NCBI GenBank assembly: GCA_028285315.1
Contig: JANQPU010000081.1
Coordinates: forward strand, 1-43,041
DNA: 43,041 nt
Source of the DNA: Acaryochloris sp. IP29b_bin.176
Lineage (GTDB): Bacteria; Cyanobacteriota; Cyanobacteriia; Thermosynechococcales; Thermosynechococcaceae
Reading direction: 5' to 3'
In this document: positions 13,201 through 21,346 of the stretch, in pieces
Position numbering within the stretch: the stretch's first letter is position 1
Layout: every line of letters begins with the position of its first letter
The notes under the pieces: model-generated
Seen by the model: the letters and a program-made list of their open reading frames with translations, nothing else
Told to the model about the DNA's origin: nothing
Database searches by the model: none
Position numbers and translations under genes: made by a program

Positions 13201-14027
13201 TGGATGACCTATTCTTACGAGCGACAGAAGCCGATGAACCCGCAGAACAGAACTTTATTCGTAAACATGCCCTCGCCTTAAAAGAGCAGGGAGTCGAGAA
13301 TGTCTCTGCTCGTCTCTTCTCTAACCCTGCCGGAGATTTTGGTTCTCTGGTCAATGACCGGGTCACGGATTCCAACTGGGAATCCTCGGATGAGCTGGGG
13401 CAAACTTGGGGCGATCGCAATGCCTTTAGCTATGGTCGCAATGACAAAGGTCAAGCCCGTCCTGAAGTTCTCCAAACCCTACTCAAGAGCACAGAGCAGA
13501 TTGTCCAAGAAATTGACTCGGTAGAATATGGGCTCACCGATATTCAGGAATATTATGCCAACACGGGCGGCCTCAAGCTTGCCGCAGAGCAACAACGCGG
13601 TGAAAAGGTGAAAGCCAATTTTGTCGAAAGTTTTTCTAAAGACACGACCCCACGTGACTTAGATTCATTGTTGCGGATGGAGTACCGGACTAAACTCCTC
13701 AATCCTAAATGGGCAGACGCGATGGCTGACCAGGGATCTGGCGGAGCCTACGAAATTTCCCAGCGAATGACGGCGCTGATCGGCTGGGGAGGAACGGCAG
13801 ATTTTCAAGAAGGGTGGGTCTATGACCAGGCAGCAGATACCTATGCTCTAGATCCAGAAATGGCTGAGAAACTGCGTCAAGCCAATCCTGAAGCCTTTCG
13901 CAATATTGTAGGTAGAATGCTAGAAGCCCACGGTCGCGGGTTTTGGAGTCCAGATCAGGACAAATTGGATCAACTCCGAGCCTTGTACGAGCTAACGGAC
14001 GAAGAGTTGGAAGGGGTTAAAGTTTAG
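10242..14027 (+). CDS. chlH: Magnesium-chelatase subunit H, short form (ChlH/CobN family)
   Basis: The H subunit binds protoporphyrin IX and inserts magnesium with the ChlI-ChlD ATPase, the first committed step of chlorophyll synthesis. The 1261-residue chain is ChlH/BchH-like throughout: an N-terminal DUF3479-like part (LVFESALELMSL, then LIIYGYWNAGG), then PPVVGILLYRKHV, HFGMHGTVEWLPG, and a C-terminal MEYRTKLLNPKWADAM block. It is clearly shorter than the about 1330-residue plant-type ChlH, whose N-terminus differs. It therefore probably represents the second, shorter ChlH-type paralogue of cyanobacteria. A cobaltochelatase CobN role is possible but less likely. Its stop overlaps that of the convergent doc gene by four bases. 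Confidence 0.85.
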   Translation: MARIVLIAGFESFNIDLYVRAAELAQARCPGLEVRIFSDRDINADPEAVTAALQGADVFFGSLVFDYDQVLWLRERVQDIPIRLVFESALELMSLTQLGKFVIGEKPKGMPKPVKFILDKFSSGKEEDKLAGYISFLKTGPKLLKFVPVQKVQDLRNWLIIYGYWNAGGPENVAAMCWTLAEKYLDLPLNAEIPPPIETPNIGLLHPDYESFFESPQDYLDWYRINRLPFLWKAGATTTTRHIHFEHPPVVGILLYRKHVITKQPYIPQMIRKFEEAGLIPLPIFINGVEGHVAVRDLMTTHHEQAQRQQGTKEILSLSEKAAEVDAIVSTIGFPLVGGPAGSMEAGRQVAVAKQILSAKNVPYLVAAPLLIQDIYSWTRQGIGGLQSVVLYALPELDGAIDTIPLGGLVGNDIYIVPERVDRLTGRLKQWIALRQKPMAERKLAILLYGFPPGYGATGTAALLNVPKSLLSLLRSLKAQGYNVGDLPEDGEEIVDWVREADNGLVDAAQMNGHAGATTVNVRQLERWLGYLLTHRIEKQWDSLTGTGIKTNGEEFSVGGIQMGNVWIGVQPPLGLSGDPMRLMFERDLTPHPQYAAFYKWLQNGFQADGVIHFGMHGTVEWLPGSPLGNTGYSWPDVLLGNIPNLYIYAANNPSESILAKRRGYGVLISHNVPPYGRAELYKELAALRDLIQEYREDPEKNAMLREAICKKIIDAGIDADCPFQEAKQLGIEFTPENARMFSADAFNHYLVELYEYLQVLETRLFSSGLHVLGESPNAEKLESYLQAYFGEELPEDAIAAIATGKAADQIRQRFELNGSTPKLEEALQIRSLLAQTEDELTNLLRGLNGEYIPPAPGGDLLRDGPGVLPTGRNIHALDPYRMPSPAAYERGREIARKILAQNLEEKGTYPETVAVMLWGLDAIKTRGESLGILLELVGAEPIKEGTGRIVRYGLTPLEELDHPRVDVLANLSGIFRDSFVNIIELLDDLFLRATEADEPAEQNFIRKHALALKEQGVENVSARLFSNPAGDFGSLVNDRVTDSNWESSDELGQTWGDRNAFSYGRNDKGQARPEVLQTLLKSTEQIVQEIDSVEYGLTDIQEYYANTGGLKLAAEQQRGEKVKANFVESFSKDTTPRDLDSLLRMEYRTKLLNPKWADAMADQGSGGAYEISQRMTALIGWGGTADFQEGWVYDQAADTYALDPEMAEKLRQANPEAFRNIVGRMLEAHGRGFWSPDQDKLDQLRALYELTDEELEGVKV

Positions 14028-14446
14028 TTGTTAGGCTTAATGTTATCTCGTATTTTTATGGTTAAAGCTTCTTTACTCATCTCACTTTTAGCAACTTGCA
14101 GAACTATCTCATAGACCTCAGTATTCTCCAAAATCAACGAATACTTATTAAAGCGAATGAAAGTATCCATTGCTGCAAGAGCAGTACGTTTATTACCATC
14201 GACAAATGGATGGTTCATGATCAGATGATAGAGGTAGGCTGCTGCTTGGTCGTAAATTGTTGGGCGTAGAAGTTCGCCAAAGAAACTAGCCTGTGGTTGG
14301 GCGAGTGCTGATTCTAATAGACCTTGATCACGGATACCATAAGTTCCTCCAAATTTCTCAATTTGTCGGCTATGAATTTTTAATACTAATGCCTGATTTA
14401 AAAATTTAGGAGTTGGCAAGGCGACGATATACCTCTTCTCTCTCAT
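14024..14446 (-). CDS. Doc/Fic-family toxin (death-on-curing type)
   Basis: The 140-residue protein carries the Fic core HPFVDGNKRTA (about residues 79-89), with the GNKR variant typical of Doc, preceded by IHSRQIEKFGG and LLESALAQPQ, both usual for this family. Doc toxins are kinase-like Fic proteins that phosphorylate elongation factor Tu; that activity here is inferred from the family. The ATG start lies 41 bases inside the end of the upstream TPR gene, so the two are translationally linked. A TTG ten codons later would remove much of the overlap. The usual separate antitoxin gene is absent; the end of the TPR protein may supply it. Confidence 0.85.
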   Translation of the reverse strand: MREKRYIVALPTPKFLNQALVLKIHSRQIEKFGGTYGIRDQGLLESALAQPQASFFGELLRPTIYDQAAAYLYHLIMNHPFVDGNKRTALAAMDTFIRFNKYSLILENTEVYEIVLQVAKSEMSKEALTIKIRDNIKPNN

Positions 14447-15566
14447 TTTCAGAGTCTAGGTATGCTTGCCATACTTCTTGTTCAAAGTTCAATCCATCGC
14501 TAGCATCAGCAACTGTATTATCAGTGTTGGAACTCTGCTTCAGAGTAGATAAGGCTGCATTGTTGAGTAGCTGTTGAAATTTGTGGTTATTACGAACTAA
14601 ATCAAAATCTGGTTCAGTTTTTGCGTCTTCTCGCCAGTCAGGATAGAGATCGATCGCTTTGCCCAGATCCTGTATTGCCTTCTCAGCATCACCTTGCAGT
14701 CCGTAAGCACAAGCTCTGTTATACCAAGCCTTAGACAATTCCGGCTTAAGTTCAATCGCTTGAGAATAGGCAGAAATCGCATCATCGTAACGTTTCAGAT
14801 AAAGCAGTGGAAGCCCCTTGGCAGACCAAGCATCTGGACGGCTTGATTCTATGGCAATAGCTTTATCGAATGCATCTATAGCATCACTATACTGATTTAG
14901 GCAAACTTTCGCTGTTCCCAAATTGAGCCATGCATCATAATTGTGATCTTGCAATTGGATGGACCGCTCTGTCGCAGTGATGGAGTCAGCAAAACGCTTT
15001 AAATGTAGTAGCGAATAGCCTCTACTATACCAACATTCAGGATTGTCGGGTTGGTATTTGATAGCCTTGTCAAAAGCCAACAATGCTTTTTCATATTGAC
15101 CTTGTTGCTCAAAAACTGCACCTTTATTAAACCAAGCATCGGCATAATCAGGTTTAAGCTTAAGAGCTGACTCAAGATCTTCAAACGCCTTGGAATAATT
15201 ACCTAATCCTAGAAAAGACGCCCCTCTATTTAAATAAGCTTCAACAAAATCAGGCTTGAGCCCTAGAGCTACTTCAAAATCTTCAATAGCCTTGGAATAA
15301 TTACCTAGTGCTAAAAAAGACGCCCCTCTATTTAAATGTGCCTCAGCAAAATTTGGTGATAGCTTAAGTACCTTGTTAAACGTAGTAATAGCTTCTTTAT
15401 AATTTTTCTGAGTGTATAGTTCAGTTCCTCTAATGTAGAGAGAGACTGGATCTGAATTGATTTTTGATGCAATCGATTCCCCTTCCAGTAGCCTGTTAGG
15501 TGGAGCTAGACGTACAGATTGAGTTAGCTCTTGTTGGCCAGGGAAGGTTAGTGTAGAAGAAGCCAT
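14406..15566 (-). CDS. Eight-repeat TPR protein with antitoxin-like C-terminal tail
   Basis: After a 38-residue N-terminal stretch without signal peptide, eight consecutive 34-residue TPR units run from about residue 39 to 310, each with the W/Y-x-x-G-x-x-x-x-x-x-x-Y-x-x-A pattern. They are followed by a capping segment (WREDAKTEPDFDLVRNNHKF). The last about 40 residues are unlike TPR: an acidic, charged helix ending in EVWQAYLDSENEREEVYRRL then ANS. Tails of this kind are what I recall from small antitoxins paired with Doc toxins. The reading frame runs 41 bases into doc. Units 2 and 3 are near duplicates at DNA level. The gene is more A+T-rich than chlH next door. Confidence 0.8.
   Translation of the reverse strand: MASSTLTFPGQQELTQSVRLAPPNRLLEGESIASKINSDPVSLYIRGTELYTQKNYKEAITTFNKVLKLSPNFAEAHLNRGASFLALGNYSKAIEDFEVALGLKPDFVEAYLNRGASFLGLGNYSKAFEDLESALKLKPDYADAWFNKGAVFEQQGQYEKALLAFDKAIKYQPDNPECWYSRGYSLLHLKRFADSITATERSIQLQDHNYDAWLNLGTAKVCLNQYSDAIDAFDKAIAIESSRPDAWSAKGLPLLYLKRYDDAISAYSQAIELKPELSKAWYNRACAYGLQGDAEKAIQDLGKAIDLYPDWREDAKTEPDFDLVRNNHKFQQLLNNAALSTLKQSSNTDNTVADASDGLNFEQEVWQAYLDSENEREEVYRRLANS
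15190..15393 (-). repeat. Tandem 102-base duplication of a TPR unit
   Basis: Two adjacent 102-base units coding for TPR units 2 and 3 of the TPR protein are nearly identical over long stretches. For example, TGGAATAATTACCTAA at 15191 matches TGGAATAATTACCTAG at 15293, and both are followed by the same GACGCCCCTCTATTTAAAT run. The spacing is exactly 34 codons. The other six units have clearly diverged, so this looks like a recent internal duplication. The outer limits are approximate. Confidence 0.75.
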
Positions 15567-16606
15567 AACTTAGCTAAATAGCCGTTGGGAACAAGCTGTT
15601 TTGAAAATTTACTTAAATAAACTGATTTGATTCTCTAATCTATTCTTACTCAAGGTTTGATCCGAATGGTACCTCTCTATTGTGGCATGCTCACTTCTGA
15701 TTGCACTGGACTGTAGAGCAAAGTTTAGGGGTTAGCATATCGTTGAACAAATGCTGCTCGGGCTCCTTGGCGATCGTCGGAATGGATCTTTCCAGTGCCC
15801 AGCCTTTGTTAATCTTTGTGGTCTTTGCCCGCAATAAGGATGGTATCGCCTGGTTTAGCTGGCGCGATCGCACCGCTATCCCAACAGAACAGCAAAACTC
15901 ACCAGCGTTGCGATTTAACCTCAGTTTAAGGATGCACCCAGATTAAAGCATTCAGTTGTATGACCTCAGTAATAGCACCCACTGGGTCTGGCTCTTTTGA
16001 GACAATACAAATTTCAAGTCCTTGGCTAGGAGAATTTTGCTAACAAACAAGAGTTGCTAATTTTTCGGAGTAACGTAATCCATATACTAAAAAGCTCAGG
16101 TAATTGAAATCATTGGGATTTTTTGAAGCTATAGTTAGTTTTTTGAGGATTTAAGCGAAATTATTATGTGATGCAGTAACTAAATCTACTACAAAAGGAG
16201 AGTGAATGATTTATGCTACCTCGTTTAAGATAGCTATCTATCATCTCTAACAGTTGAGAATGATCAACGTCTTGAGTAAAGCAAAGTAATCTTGCCAATT
16301 CAATTCAGATTAGTCTGTATCTAGTTAGGAATGCCCCGATGGTGCACTAGAATTTCGCTTAATGTTAGTTGTGAGTTCATCAATAAGAAAAATTGGCTTT
16401 CACTAGTTTCAATACTTCTTATTGACCTGTCTTTATTTTTACTCCCTTCGATTTCTTTAGAGCTTTAAATTTTTTATCATGAATTCATGACAAGTATATT
16501 TGATGACTAGATAAAAATACTTCAGTGCTGTAGGGTAGCTTACAAAAATTCCATATTAGATGCTTTAAAATCGCAGCAACCAATTAACTAAGAAACTGTT
16601 TTACAT
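15567..16606. other. Gene-poor intergenic region (about 1 kb)
   Basis: No gene is convincing here. The only structure I can support is the left copy of a diverged repeat at 15753-15871 that reappears after the glycosyltransferase gene. The remainder is A+T-rich with frequent stops and must hold the promoters of the divergent TPR gene and glycosyltransferase gene. Confidence 0.5.
15753..15871. repeat. Diverged direct repeat, left copy
   Basis: This stretch can be aligned by eye with 17842-17963, in the same orientation. Shared blocks include CGATCGTCG, TTTG(T/G)TAATCTT(T/C)GTGG, GGAT(G/A)GTATCG and the terminal GCGATCGC. The minus strand is open for about 60 codons in both copies, with a weakly similar basic peptide. 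Its origin is unknown: a decayed gene fragment or a repeated non-coding element. Confidence 0.6.
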
Positions 16607-18142: not shown

Positions 18143-18535
18143 ATGGAGTATACCCTGCCAGCAATCTATAACATCCCTGCCCCCCCTTACTTTCTCGTCC
18201 TGATTGCCGCTATATTTGGCGTAGCTTGTGGTAGGGCCTTTGAAGTGTCCTTAAAGCAAAAGGCAGATGAATGGTCGAAGCGAAAAACGACAAAGCCTTT
18301 GAGTGATGTTGCAGAACTCCGGTTGCTGATCCCATTAGCAGGGGTTTGCGTCTGTAGTTGGGTCTTTTTAGGGTCAGCCCTAACTATCTTTGCCGTATCC
18401 TGGGCTCAGGGTTTCACAACAGCATTTTTTGTGGTGACTTTTAGTGCTGTTCTCCTGTGGTCACAAATGATTCAAGTACTGAAAGCAATCGAAGAGGGTG
18501 GCTCAGAAGCGTTGGAAATCACCAGCATTTTCTAA
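18143..18535 (+). CDS. Small integral membrane protein of unknown function
   Basis: I do not recognise the family. The 130-residue protein has three hydrophobic segments: about residues 15-32 (PYFLVLIAAIFGVACGRAF), 61-82 (LIPLAGVCVCSWVFLGSAL) and 89-110. A charged loop (SLKQKADEWSKRKTTK) lies after the first. A good ribosome binding site (TGAGGA) precedes the ATG. It ends 34 bases before the start of the GT2-TPR glycosyltransferase, in the same direction, so the two are probably co-transcribed and it may belong to the same glycan pathway. Confidence 0.7.
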   Translation: MEYTLPAIYNIPAPPYFLVLIAAIFGVACGRAFEVSLKQKADEWSKRKTTKPLSDVAELRLLIPLAGVCVCSWVFLGSALTIFAVSWAQGFTTAFFVVTFSAVLLWSQMIQVLKAIEEGGSEALEITSIF

Positions 18536-18569
18536 TCGCAGTTGCTCTAACCACCGATTCGGCTTAATC

Positions 18570-19781
18570 ATGACACTTAGCTTGTGCATGATTGTCAAAA
18601 ATGAGGCAGCGAGCCTATCTCGCTGCCTTGAAAGTGTAGATGGCTTTGTCGATGAAATGATCATCGTCGATACTGGCTCCACAGATGATACCATCGCTAT
18701 CGCCCAATCTTTTGGTGCCCAAGTTTACTGCTATAACTGGGAAAATGACTTTGCTGCAGCCCGTAATTTTGGGTTGCAATATGTGCAATCGGGGTGGGTG
18801 CTAGTTCTAGATGCCGATGAAGTGTTGGTAAAGGATGTTATTCCTCAACTTCAAGCCATCCTGCAGCAGGACAACCTCCTGACGGTGACCTTACTGCGCC
18901 ATGAAGTGGGGGCTCAGCAGTCCCCTTATTCACTACTTTCTCGCTTATTTCGCAACCATCCTCAAATCCACTTTCAGCGTCCCTATCATGAACTGATTGA
19001 TGATAGTGTGTTGACCATTCAGGCAAAAGAACCGCATTGGCAGGTAGGGCATCTGCCAACAGTCGCTATTGAGCATTTTGGCTATCAGGTGGATGCGATC
19101 GCAACCCGCAAGAAACACGAACGGGCCTGCCAAATTATGGCCGCCGCCCTCACCAACGATCCGAACGATGCCTATCTCTGCAGCAAACTGGGAGCCCTGT
19201 ACGTCGATATGGGCCAAGTAGAGCAGGGGATAGAACTACTGCAACAAGGACTGAATCTGCATCCGACTGAAGCCTCTGTTCTCTACGAGCTGCATTATCA
19301 TCTGGGGCATACCTATGCCCAATGCCGACAGGCCGCACCGGCTCTTCAGCACTATCAGCAGGCGGTTCAGCAGGATTTACCTGGACTCTTAAAGCTGGGG
19401 GCATACAATAATTGGGCAAATTTACTTCAAGACGGTGGTCGGTACGAGCAGGCCAGCCGTCTCTATCAGCAGGTGATCAGCCTGCAACCGGAATGGGCTG
19501 TGGGCTATTACAACTTAGGGCTAACCCTAAGAGCCATGGGGAATTTAGCAGGTGCGATCGCAGCTTACCAACAAGCTATTCAAAAACAGCCTGACTATGC
19601 AGAAGCCTATCAAAATCTAGGGGTAGCGCTCTTCAAGCAGGGACAGCTCCAAGCCAGCCAACAAGCCTTTACTCAAGCCATTGCCCTGCATCAACAGCAC
19701 AACAATATGGTCGCTGCCGAGCAGTTACAGCAAGGGATGGCTGAGCTAGGATTGCCGGGTTTCCCTGCTGAAGGTACTTAG
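18570..19781 (+). CDS. Family 2 glycosyltransferase with C-terminal TPR repeats (SunS-like layout)
   Basis: The N-terminal GT-A domain starts with SLCMIVKNEAASLSRCLESV, has IIVDTGSTDDT, and a DADEVL motif that binds the metal-nucleotide-sugar. The C-terminal half consists of TPR-like units (for example AVGYYNLGLTLRAMGNLAGA and YAEAYQNLGVALFKQGQLQA). This architecture occurs in glycosyltransferases that act on proteins or peptides, the TPR part presenting the acceptor. The ATG at 18570 is preferred over an in-frame upstream start inside the preceding gene because the family motif begins right after it. That gives 403 residues. Its stop codon overlaps that of convergent kaiC by four bases. Confidence 0.88.
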   Translation: MTLSLCMIVKNEAASLSRCLESVDGFVDEMIIVDTGSTDDTIAIAQSFGAQVYCYNWENDFAAARNFGLQYVQSGWVLVLDADEVLVKDVIPQLQAILQQDNLLTVTLLRHEVGAQQSPYSLLSRLFRNHPQIHFQRPYHELIDDSVLTIQAKEPHWQVGHLPTVAIEHFGYQVDAIATRKKHERACQIMAAALTNDPNDAYLCSKLGALYVDMGQVEQGIELLQQGLNLHPTEASVLYELHYHLGHTYAQCRQAAPALQHYQQAVQQDLPGLLKLGAYNNWANLLQDGGRYEQASRLYQQVISLQPEWAVGYYNLGLTLRAMGNLAGAIAAYQQAIQKQPDYAEAYQNLGVALFKQGQLQASQQAFTQAIALHQQHNNMVAAEQLQQGMAELGLPGFPAEGT

Positions 19782-21346
19782 AGAATATCGTCGCCACCCA
19801 GGCTCTGAACGTCCTGCATAATGCGGCTTAAATCGCGTTTTTCATCCAGCGACACTCGGGTGGGTGTCCCGCTGATAATGCCCTCGAAGTTGTGGAATGA
19901 ATCCTTAATCTCGGGACCATGCTGACTGATGGAGTATTCGCGAATGCCTTTATCATGCCAAGAGCCCCGCATCTTAAAGACATTGAGCGCCCGAGACATC
20001 TCTCCCCGAATTTCCACATATTGGAGCATCAAAATCGTATCCGTAATCGTGGAAATATGGGATTCCGTAATGGAATGGGAGCCTAAGAAGTGATCGGTTG
20101 TATTGGTAAAGAACCCGGTGATTTCTTCCTGCTTGGCGAATCCTGTCACCCCAATCACAAACTGACGAAAGGCATTATTGCTGACGCCTCGGGCCAAGGC
20201 AGAGAGGGAGTCAATGGAAATTCGCGATGGCTTAAATTCGGCAATCTCGGATTTAATGCGCTGAAGATGGTCTTCTAAACCCGCTGATTCAGGATAGGTG
20301 CAGAGGATTTTTAACAACCCCCTCTTTTCCATCTCCTCAAAATCAATCCCCCAGGAATAAGCATTACGGGACAGCTGAGCCCGAGATTCTTCATAGGCAA
20401 ATAAGATAGCGCGATCGCCATTCCGACAAGCATCTTCTAAAAACTTGCTGACCAGTAACGTTTTGCCCGTTCCCGTGGCACCCGTCACCAAGATAATGGA
20501 ATCCTTGAAGAATCCCCCTCCGCACATTTCATCCAAGGTTTTAACCCCAGAAGAAACCCGAGCATTGGATGAACGCTGGGTGAGGCGCATGGCCCCGAGG
20601 GGAAAAATATTAATACCGTCATCCGTAATCGTGAAGGGATACTCGCCCTTCATATGGCTGGTGCCCCGCAATTTCAGAATTTCTAGGGTGCGCCGCCGTC
20701 GTTCACCCTCCAGGACATTTCGAACAATGACAACATTGTCAGAGACAAATTCTTCGACACCGTACCGGGCCACGGGACCATATTCATCCACCCGCTCTGT
20801 CGTCATCACGGTTGTCACCCCAATTTGCTTGAGACGAGCCGTTAACCGAAAAATCTCGCGTCGGACCACCGTTGCCGCATCATACTGCTGAAATATTGCA
20901 GTAACAGAGTCAATCCCTACCCGCTTAGCCTGATATTTACTAATGGCATACTGAATACGCTCGATTAAAGCAGATAAATCAAATTCACCTGCAATATCTT
21001 GCCCTTCTGGATCTGGAGACGCGTCTAGAATGAACAGCTTGCCGTCGTCAATGAGCTGTTGTAGATCCCAACCAAAACTCAAGGCATTTTGAATAATGTC
21101 AGTAGGCGATTCTTCAAACGTGACGAATACAGCCGGATCCTCAAAATGGATGATGCCGTGATAAAGGAACTGCATCGCAAATAGGGTTTTCCCTGTGCCC
21201 GAGGTTCCACTGACCAAAGTGGTTCGTCCCTGCGGTAATCCCCCATGACTGATATCATCAAAGCCTTCGATGCGAGTCAGGATCTTTTTTACTTCGACTT
21301 TGTTCTTATGATTGTTTTCATACTGGGATGAGTTGCTTTTTGTCAT
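19778..21346 (-). CDS. kaiC: Circadian clock ATPase/autokinase KaiC
   Basis: KaiC is the central oscillator protein. It is a hexamer of two RecA-like rings whose phosphorylation cycles daily under KaiA and KaiB control. The 522-residue protein has both domains: CI Walker A GTSGTGKT (47-54) with glutamate pair E78-E79, and CII Walker A GATGTGKT (289-296) with E319-E320. The phosphorylation sites are S432 and T433 in SHISTITDT, equal to S431/T432 of Synechococcus elongatus. The neighbouring threonine T427 (T426 there) is kept, but the next residue is Glu instead of Asp. The C-terminal A-loop and tail are present. It follows kaiB by 83 bases. Confidence 0.98.
   Translation of the reverse strand: MTKSNSSQYENNHKNKVEVKKILTRIEGFDDISHGGLPQGRTTLVSGTSGTGKTLFAMQFLYHGIIHFEDPAVFVTFEESPTDIIQNALSFGWDLQQLIDDGKLFILDASPDPEGQDIAGEFDLSALIERIQYAISKYQAKRVGIDSVTAIFQQYDAATVVRREIFRLTARLKQIGVTTVMTTERVDEYGPVARYGVEEFVSDNVVIVRNVLEGERRRRTLEILKLRGTSHMKGEYPFTITDDGINIFPLGAMRLTQRSSNARVSSGVKTLDEMCGGGFFKDSIILVTGATGTGKTLLVSKFLEDACRNGDRAILFAYEESRAQLSRNAYSWGIDFEEMEKRGLLKILCTYPESAGLEDHLQRIKSEIAEFKPSRISIDSLSALARGVSNNAFRQFVIGVTGFAKQEEITGFFTNTTDHFLGSHSITESHISTITDTILMLQYVEIRGEMSRALNVFKMRGSWHDKGIREYSISQHGPEIKDSFHNFEGIISGTPTRVSLDEKRDLSRIMQDVQSLGGDDIL

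What the first reader, a model, noticed from the sequence alone, without database searches (positions are those of the whole stretch)
14024..15566. TPR protein with a fused antitoxin-like tail, overlapping a Doc toxin
Sequence shows: eight TPR units end in a non-TPR acidic tail (EVWQAYLDSENEREEVYRRL then ANS), and a Doc-type Fic gene begins 41 bases inside the TPR gene. Knowledge: Doc toxins are normally preceded by a small antitoxin whose end inhibits the toxin. Inference: the antitoxin has been fused to a TPR sensor or scaffold, so toxin release might depend on a TPR-bound partner rather than on antitoxin proteolysis alone.
Basis: partly seen in the sequence, partly recalled or inferred. Interest (0 to 1): 0.62.

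Follow-up and report, generated by a model that had tools for sequence, protein, structure and literature searches.

The report
TPR protein carrying a Doc-antitoxin tail
A cyanobacterium makes a long repeat (TPR) protein whose last 25 residues look like the inhibitor tail that normally ends the tiny antitoxin of the Doc toxin, so a familiar toxin lock seems to have been moved onto a partner-binding scaffold.

Summary
The 386-aa TPR protein (14406-15566, minus) ends in a 25-residue segment that matches the C-terminus of small stand-alone antitoxins directly 5' of Doc in many cyanobacteria (up to 83% over 23 aa). A profile built only from Doc-antitoxin tails under 45% identical picks out this tail alone in the whole window. 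The Doc gene is an intact DOC_P1-type Fic protein. Its real start is probably TTG 14419, a 14-nt overlap, not the 41 nt first proposed. The fusion recurs in frame in a second Acaryochloris species (74% overall; linker 31%, tail 92% identical). It was not seen elsewhere in about 390 Cyanobacteriia genomes, where the other 72 tail-bearing frames are 46-180 aa. A portable C-terminal Doc-neutralising element ("Phd-C") is already published: a Panacea-Phd-C antitoxin and a working SUMO-Phd-C graft (PMC10440598). This is therefore a new variant of a known kind: a natural TPR-Phd-C-like antitoxin. Neutralisation by the tail is well supported by homology but untested here. That the TPR part senses a ligand that releases Doc is inference.

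The parts
14406..15566 (-). TPR-antitoxin gene, 386 aa, ATG to TAA
   Evidence: same frame in G003 (L138:5966-7129), 74% identical
14562..15437 (-). TPR solenoid, residues 44-335, eight TPR units and a TPR end-of-group domain
   Evidence: Pfam and NCBIfam; AlphaFold2; 76% identity, dN/dS 0.27 between species
14484..14561 (-). Variable linker, residues 336-361
   Evidence: 31% identity between the two species; pLDDT under 50
14409..14483 (-). Doc-antitoxin (Phd-C-like) tail, residues 362-386, EQEVWQAYLDSENEREEVYRRLANS
   Evidence: homologous to C-termini of stand-alone Doc antitoxins; 92% identity between species
14432..14442 (-). GAGAGAAGAGG inside the tail codons, possible ribosome site of doc, 12 nt before TTG 14419
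   Evidence: by inspection; SD-like tetramers in 39 of 39 loci, AGGAGG in 14; function inferred
14024..14419 (-). doc, 131 aa from TTG 14419 (longest ORF starts at ATG 14446)
   Evidence: PF02661 and TIGR01550; start
14186..14212 (-). Fic/Doc catalytic motif HPFVDGNKR
   Evidence: invariant H-P-F-x-D-G-N-K-R in alignment A2
15567..15721 (-). Upstream region conserved with G003, presumed promoter region
   Evidence: no sigma-70-like site or inverted repeat above chance

Best explanation
This is a type II toxin-antitoxin operon in which the antitoxin is a TPR protein. The last 25 residues are the Doc-neutralising element (Phd-C-like). They are probably disordered until they meet Doc, then fold as a helix into Doc's groove and cover the Fic active site, keeping Doc from modifying its target (EF-Tu in the P1 system). 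The TPR solenoid holds and stabilises this tail through a fast-evolving linker, in the place where related antitoxins carry a RHH, MazE, DUF2281-like or Panacea domain. Shown here: homology of tail and Doc, operon order and overlap, conservation in two species, and the TPR/linker/tail architecture. Taken from the literature: that a Phd-C tail on a foreign scaffold suffices to neutralise a Doc. Inferred: that this tail does so here, that autoregulation by DNA binding is lost, and how Doc is set free (a TPR ligand, or cleavage of the linker).
For: Tail matches C-termini of small ORFs in other families, E down to 1e-7 and 83% over 23 aa, each of those inspected next to a Doc with the same overlap and frame offset. 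74 tail places in 390 genomes, 72 in frames of 46-180 aa. Profile of dissimilar tails finds only this tail in the window. In-frame fusion in two species with conserved ends and a loose linker. Doc intact. PDB 3dd7 holds Doc with a 23-residue Phd C-terminal peptide. PMC10440598: Phd-C contacts the Doc active site, its truncation abolishes neutralisation, and SUMO-Phd-C neutralises.
Against: No interaction or toxicity was tested. P1 Phd itself resembles this tail family only marginally (best register p = 0.011, five tried). Conservation of the last codons may be partly for the overlapping start and ribosome site of doc. The two fusions come from draft assemblies of one genus.
Confidence: 0.8

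Rival explanations
1. The TPR part is a sensor: binding of a phage, host or stress-derived ligand pulls the tail off Doc, so release is ligand-triggered rather than set by antitoxin turnover.
For: TPR solenoid is under purifying selection, dN/dS 0.27. The Panacea domain in the same position of another Doc antitoxin was proposed to be a sensor (PMC10440598), and a Panacea-tail-Doc operon exists in a cyanobacterium (L021).
Against: No ligand, no phage association and no experiment; the linker is so variable that mechanical coupling is not obvious.
Confidence: 0.28
2. The fusion is incidental: a Doc module with its tail landed in frame behind a TPR gene. The TPR part is an inert but stabilising handle, or keeps an unrelated job, and the tail works as before.
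For: SUMO, an inert scaffold, is enough for Phd-C to work (PMC10440598). Only one clade has the fusion. The tail codons overlap the doc start, so tail and doc would travel together.
Against: TPR kept open and under constraint along with tail and Doc in two species; no tail-less orthologue of this TPR gene found in the genus, next best hits 39% or less.
Confidence: 0.35
3. The tail is also made as a separate short antitoxin from an internal start, and the long protein is a by-product.
For: A TTG at residue 359 (360 in G003) just before the tail is kept in both species.
Against: No clear ribosome site there by inspection; the product would be about 28 aa, and isolated Phd-C did not neutralise in the published case (PMC10440598).
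Confidence: 0.08
4. Chance or artefact: the tail is an ordinary charged helix, or the fusion is an assembly or frameshift error.
For: Charged helical tails are common; the window lies in a draft genome of 438 contigs.
Against: Same in-frame fusion in another species' assembly; specificity of the profile.
Confidence: 0.02

Closest known systems
PanA-Phd-C / Doc of Corynebacterium doosanense (Panacea antitoxin with C-terminal Phd-C, PMC10440598)
   Same: Modular antitoxin: N-terminal non-Phd domain plus a C-terminal Doc-neutralising element, paired with a Doc
   Different: N-terminal domain there is Panacea, here an eight-unit TPR solenoid; that system is tested, this one is not
Stand-alone cyanobacterial Doc antitoxins (55-100 aa; L003-L008, L015-L020 and others)
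   Same: Same C-terminal 25 residues, same 14-nt overlap and frame, same Doc subfamily
   Different: Small N-terminal part (DUF2281-like, weak Pfam match) in place of TPR
Phd-Doc of phage P1
   Same: Doc fold and motif; C-terminal Phd peptide binds Doc (3dd7)
   Different: No Phd DNA-binding domain here; tail similarity to P1 Phd marginal
Composite mazE-doc systems such as TasA-TasB (PMC1626090)
   Same: Doc paired with an antitoxin of another N-terminal family
   Different: MazE DNA-binding domain there, TPR here
FICD/HYPE (from knowledge)
   Same: TPR repeats joined to control of a Fic enzyme
   Different: There TPR and inhibitory helix are in cis with an AMPylating Fic domain; here they are in trans to a Doc. 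Analogy only

Membership tests
Doc toxin (TIGR01550 DOC_P1) | Score above the curated cutoff and HxFx[D/N]xNKR motif | tested here: met
   66.7 bits vs 38.65; HPFVDGNKR
Doc toxin (TIGR01550 DOC_P1) | Growth arrest by modification of EF-Tu | not testable with these tools
   No experiment
Modular Phd-C (linear-neutralisation) antitoxin | C-terminal element homologous to other Doc-antitoxin tails, next to doc | tested here: met
Modular Phd-C (linear-neutralisation) antitoxin | Element contacts the Doc active site | tested here: inconclusive
   Only single chains could be folded; a stand-in MazE-Doc read-through model was confident but contacts were not available
Modular Phd-C (linear-neutralisation) antitoxin | Element is needed and sufficient on a scaffold for neutralisation | not testable with these tools
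   Shown for C. doosanense only (PMC10440598)
Phd/YefM antitoxin family | N-terminal Phd DNA-binding fold | tested here: not met
   N-terminal part is TPR; no Phd model among the matches shown
Class I Fic antitoxin (VbhA/FicA type) | [S/T]xxxE[G/N] inhibitory motif in a small antitoxin | tested here: not met
   Tail reads DSENEREEVYRR; no such motif (by inspection)

The most novel reading that the evidence does not exclude
A ligand-gated toxin-antitoxin switch: the TPR solenoid replaces the DNA-binding or Panacea domain as a sensor, and binding of a specific phage or host partner frees Doc without the usual operon autoregulation. This would be a TPR class of trigger-sensing antitoxin.
Probability: 0.28. 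Interest if true: 0.72.

Novelty: new variant of a known kind. Interest (0 to 1): 0.52.

Why it matters
It looks like a natural counterpart of the engineered SUMO-Phd-C graft: a portable Doc-blocking tail placed by evolution on a partner-binding scaffold. That makes the open question of what the N-terminal domain of modular antitoxins senses testable with a domain class whose ligands can be pulled down. It also suggests why the tail travels with doc: its codons overlap the toxin's start and may carry its ribosome site, so an upstream gene can be recruited as antitoxin scaffold.

Tried and rejected
Tail alone against Pfam and NCBIfam: nothing usable; genome neighbours were needed. Tail against PDB sequences: no significant match. 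Direct similarity of the tail family to P1 Phd: marginal, not relied on. Operator-like inverted repeat or sigma-70 promoter upstream: none above chance. Structure of the actual pair: the tool folds single chains and the two genes lie in different frames, so an in-frame MazE-Doc pair from another locus (stop read as Q) was modelled as a stand-in; contacts could not be read, so it is not used as proof. dN/dS of the tail: too few changes to be informative. Literature search for TPR-antitoxin fusions with Doc: none found in the held library, which lacks most subscription papers.

Full report
What is there. The window belongs to an Acaryochloris-like cyanobacterium (G000). On the minus strand lie a 386-aa TPR gene (14406-15566) and a doc gene (14024 to 14419 or 14446), converging on bchH, whose end overlaps that of doc by four bases (bchH named by me from its sequence). 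Pfam finds eight TPR_1 stretches. NCBIfam places a TPR end-of-group domain at 280-335. AlphaFold2 gives a confident solenoid and a C-terminal part below pLDDT 50 with a lone helix at 356-385. Doc passes the DOC_P1 cutoff and has an intact HPFVDGNKR.

Is the tail an antitoxin tail? A search with the last 28 residues in 97 related genomes found, besides the same fusion in G003, C-termini of small open frames in other families, with up to 83% identity over 23 residues and E down to 1e-7. In most of those inspected a Doc follows with the same overlap and frame offset; in some the contig or the motif search gave none. A profile of 15 tails found 74 places at E of at most 1e-4 in 390 Cyanobacteriia genomes. 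Of these, 72 are in frames of 46-180 aa and only the two Acaryochloris frames are long (387/388 codons). In the 29 held genomes of the order only these two carry the tail. Two further order-level searches, largely of the same genomes, gave no other long frame.

A scoring matrix made from 91 Doc-antitoxin tails under 45% identical to this one scores the window tail at 18.1. The next best of 20,391 peptides in the window scores 11.5, and shuffles that keep the LA anchor reach the tail's score with p = 6e-5.

Conservation. Between G000 and G003 the TPR part is 76% identical (dN/dS 0.27), the linker 31%, the tail 92% and Doc 85% (dN/dS 0.18). A loose linker between two conserved ends is what a tethered inhibitor needs. 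For the 25 tail codons dN/dS carries no information (dS 0.067), and their last bases overlap doc, so part of the conservation may be for the nucleotides.

The overlap. G003 lacks that ATG and starts at a TTG that gives a 14-nt overlap. At this position 38 of 39 distinct cyanobacterial loci have TTG, and every one has an SD-like tetramer upstream inside the tail codons, 14 of them AGGAGG. I take 14419 as the likely start; the 12-nt spacing from the purine run is rather long, so this is inference.

Modularity. Doc genes across phyla are preceded by antitoxins with different N-terminal parts: DUF2281-like, RHH-like, MazE, and one SocA_Panacea domain (L021). Most end in a predicted helix with L-A plus up to two residues. 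Among 125 distinct Doc antitoxins collected with that ending, lengths run from 55 to 203 aa and then jump to 386/387, the two TPR fusions.

Literature. A Doc-neutralising Phd-C element attached to Panacea was shown by others: it contacts the active site in the model, its loss abolishes neutralisation, and SUMO-Phd-C works while Phd-C alone does not. The Panacea domain was proposed to be a sensor (PMC10440598). Composite mazE-doc systems are known too (PMC1626090). PDB 3dd7 holds Doc with a 23-residue Phd peptide. I found no report of a TPR version in the held library.

Origin. In relative G001, bchH is followed within about 30 nt by the convergent 3' end of an ORF that I recognise as murE. In the window a 120-nt piece of that 3' end (82% identity) lies at 15753-15872, beyond the TPR-doc operon, and no full copy was found in G000 (the genome is 87% complete). 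The operon therefore looks like an insertion between bchH and murE, or the result of a rearrangement there. The other genus members have other genes next to bchH.

Mechanism and confidence. I am fairly sure (0.8) that this is a TPR-scaffolded Phd-C-like antitoxin paired with Doc. Whether the TPR part senses something (0.28) or merely holds the tail (0.35) cannot be decided here. No DNA-binding domain was seen among the matches, so loss of autoregulation is likely but inferred. A model of an in-frame MazE-Doc homologue from another locus was confident (mean pLDDT 91, Doc half TM 0.89 to 3dd7_A), but contacts were not available.

Noticed in passing
window 15753-15872: A 120-nt remnant (82% identity) of the 3' end of a gene I recognise as murE, which directly follows bchH in relative G001; suggests the TPR-doc operon was inserted here.
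   Followed up: partly
L021:2400-3029: Xenococcaceae: SocA_Panacea domain (1.1e-17) joined to the same Doc tail and followed by Doc, a second natural scaffold for the element.
   Followed up: partly
L134 (158 aa from ATG), L136 (145-aa frame): Further Doc-tail antitoxins with N-terminal parts that no Pfam model explains.
   Followed up: no
39 distinct cyanobacterial loci; window 14417-14442: Doc start is TTG in 38 of 39, 14 nt inside the antitoxin gene, with SD-like sequence inside the tail codons.
   Followed up: partly
L025-L086 and L143-L221: Doc antitoxins of unrelated N-terminal families mostly end in a helix with L-A near the C-terminus; looks like a general Doc-binding signature.
   Followed up: partly
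window 18498-19781 and 19778-21346: Glycosyltransferase with C-terminal TPR-like repeats, converging (4-nt overlap) on a KaiC-like double-ATPase gene; recognised by eye only.
   Followed up: no
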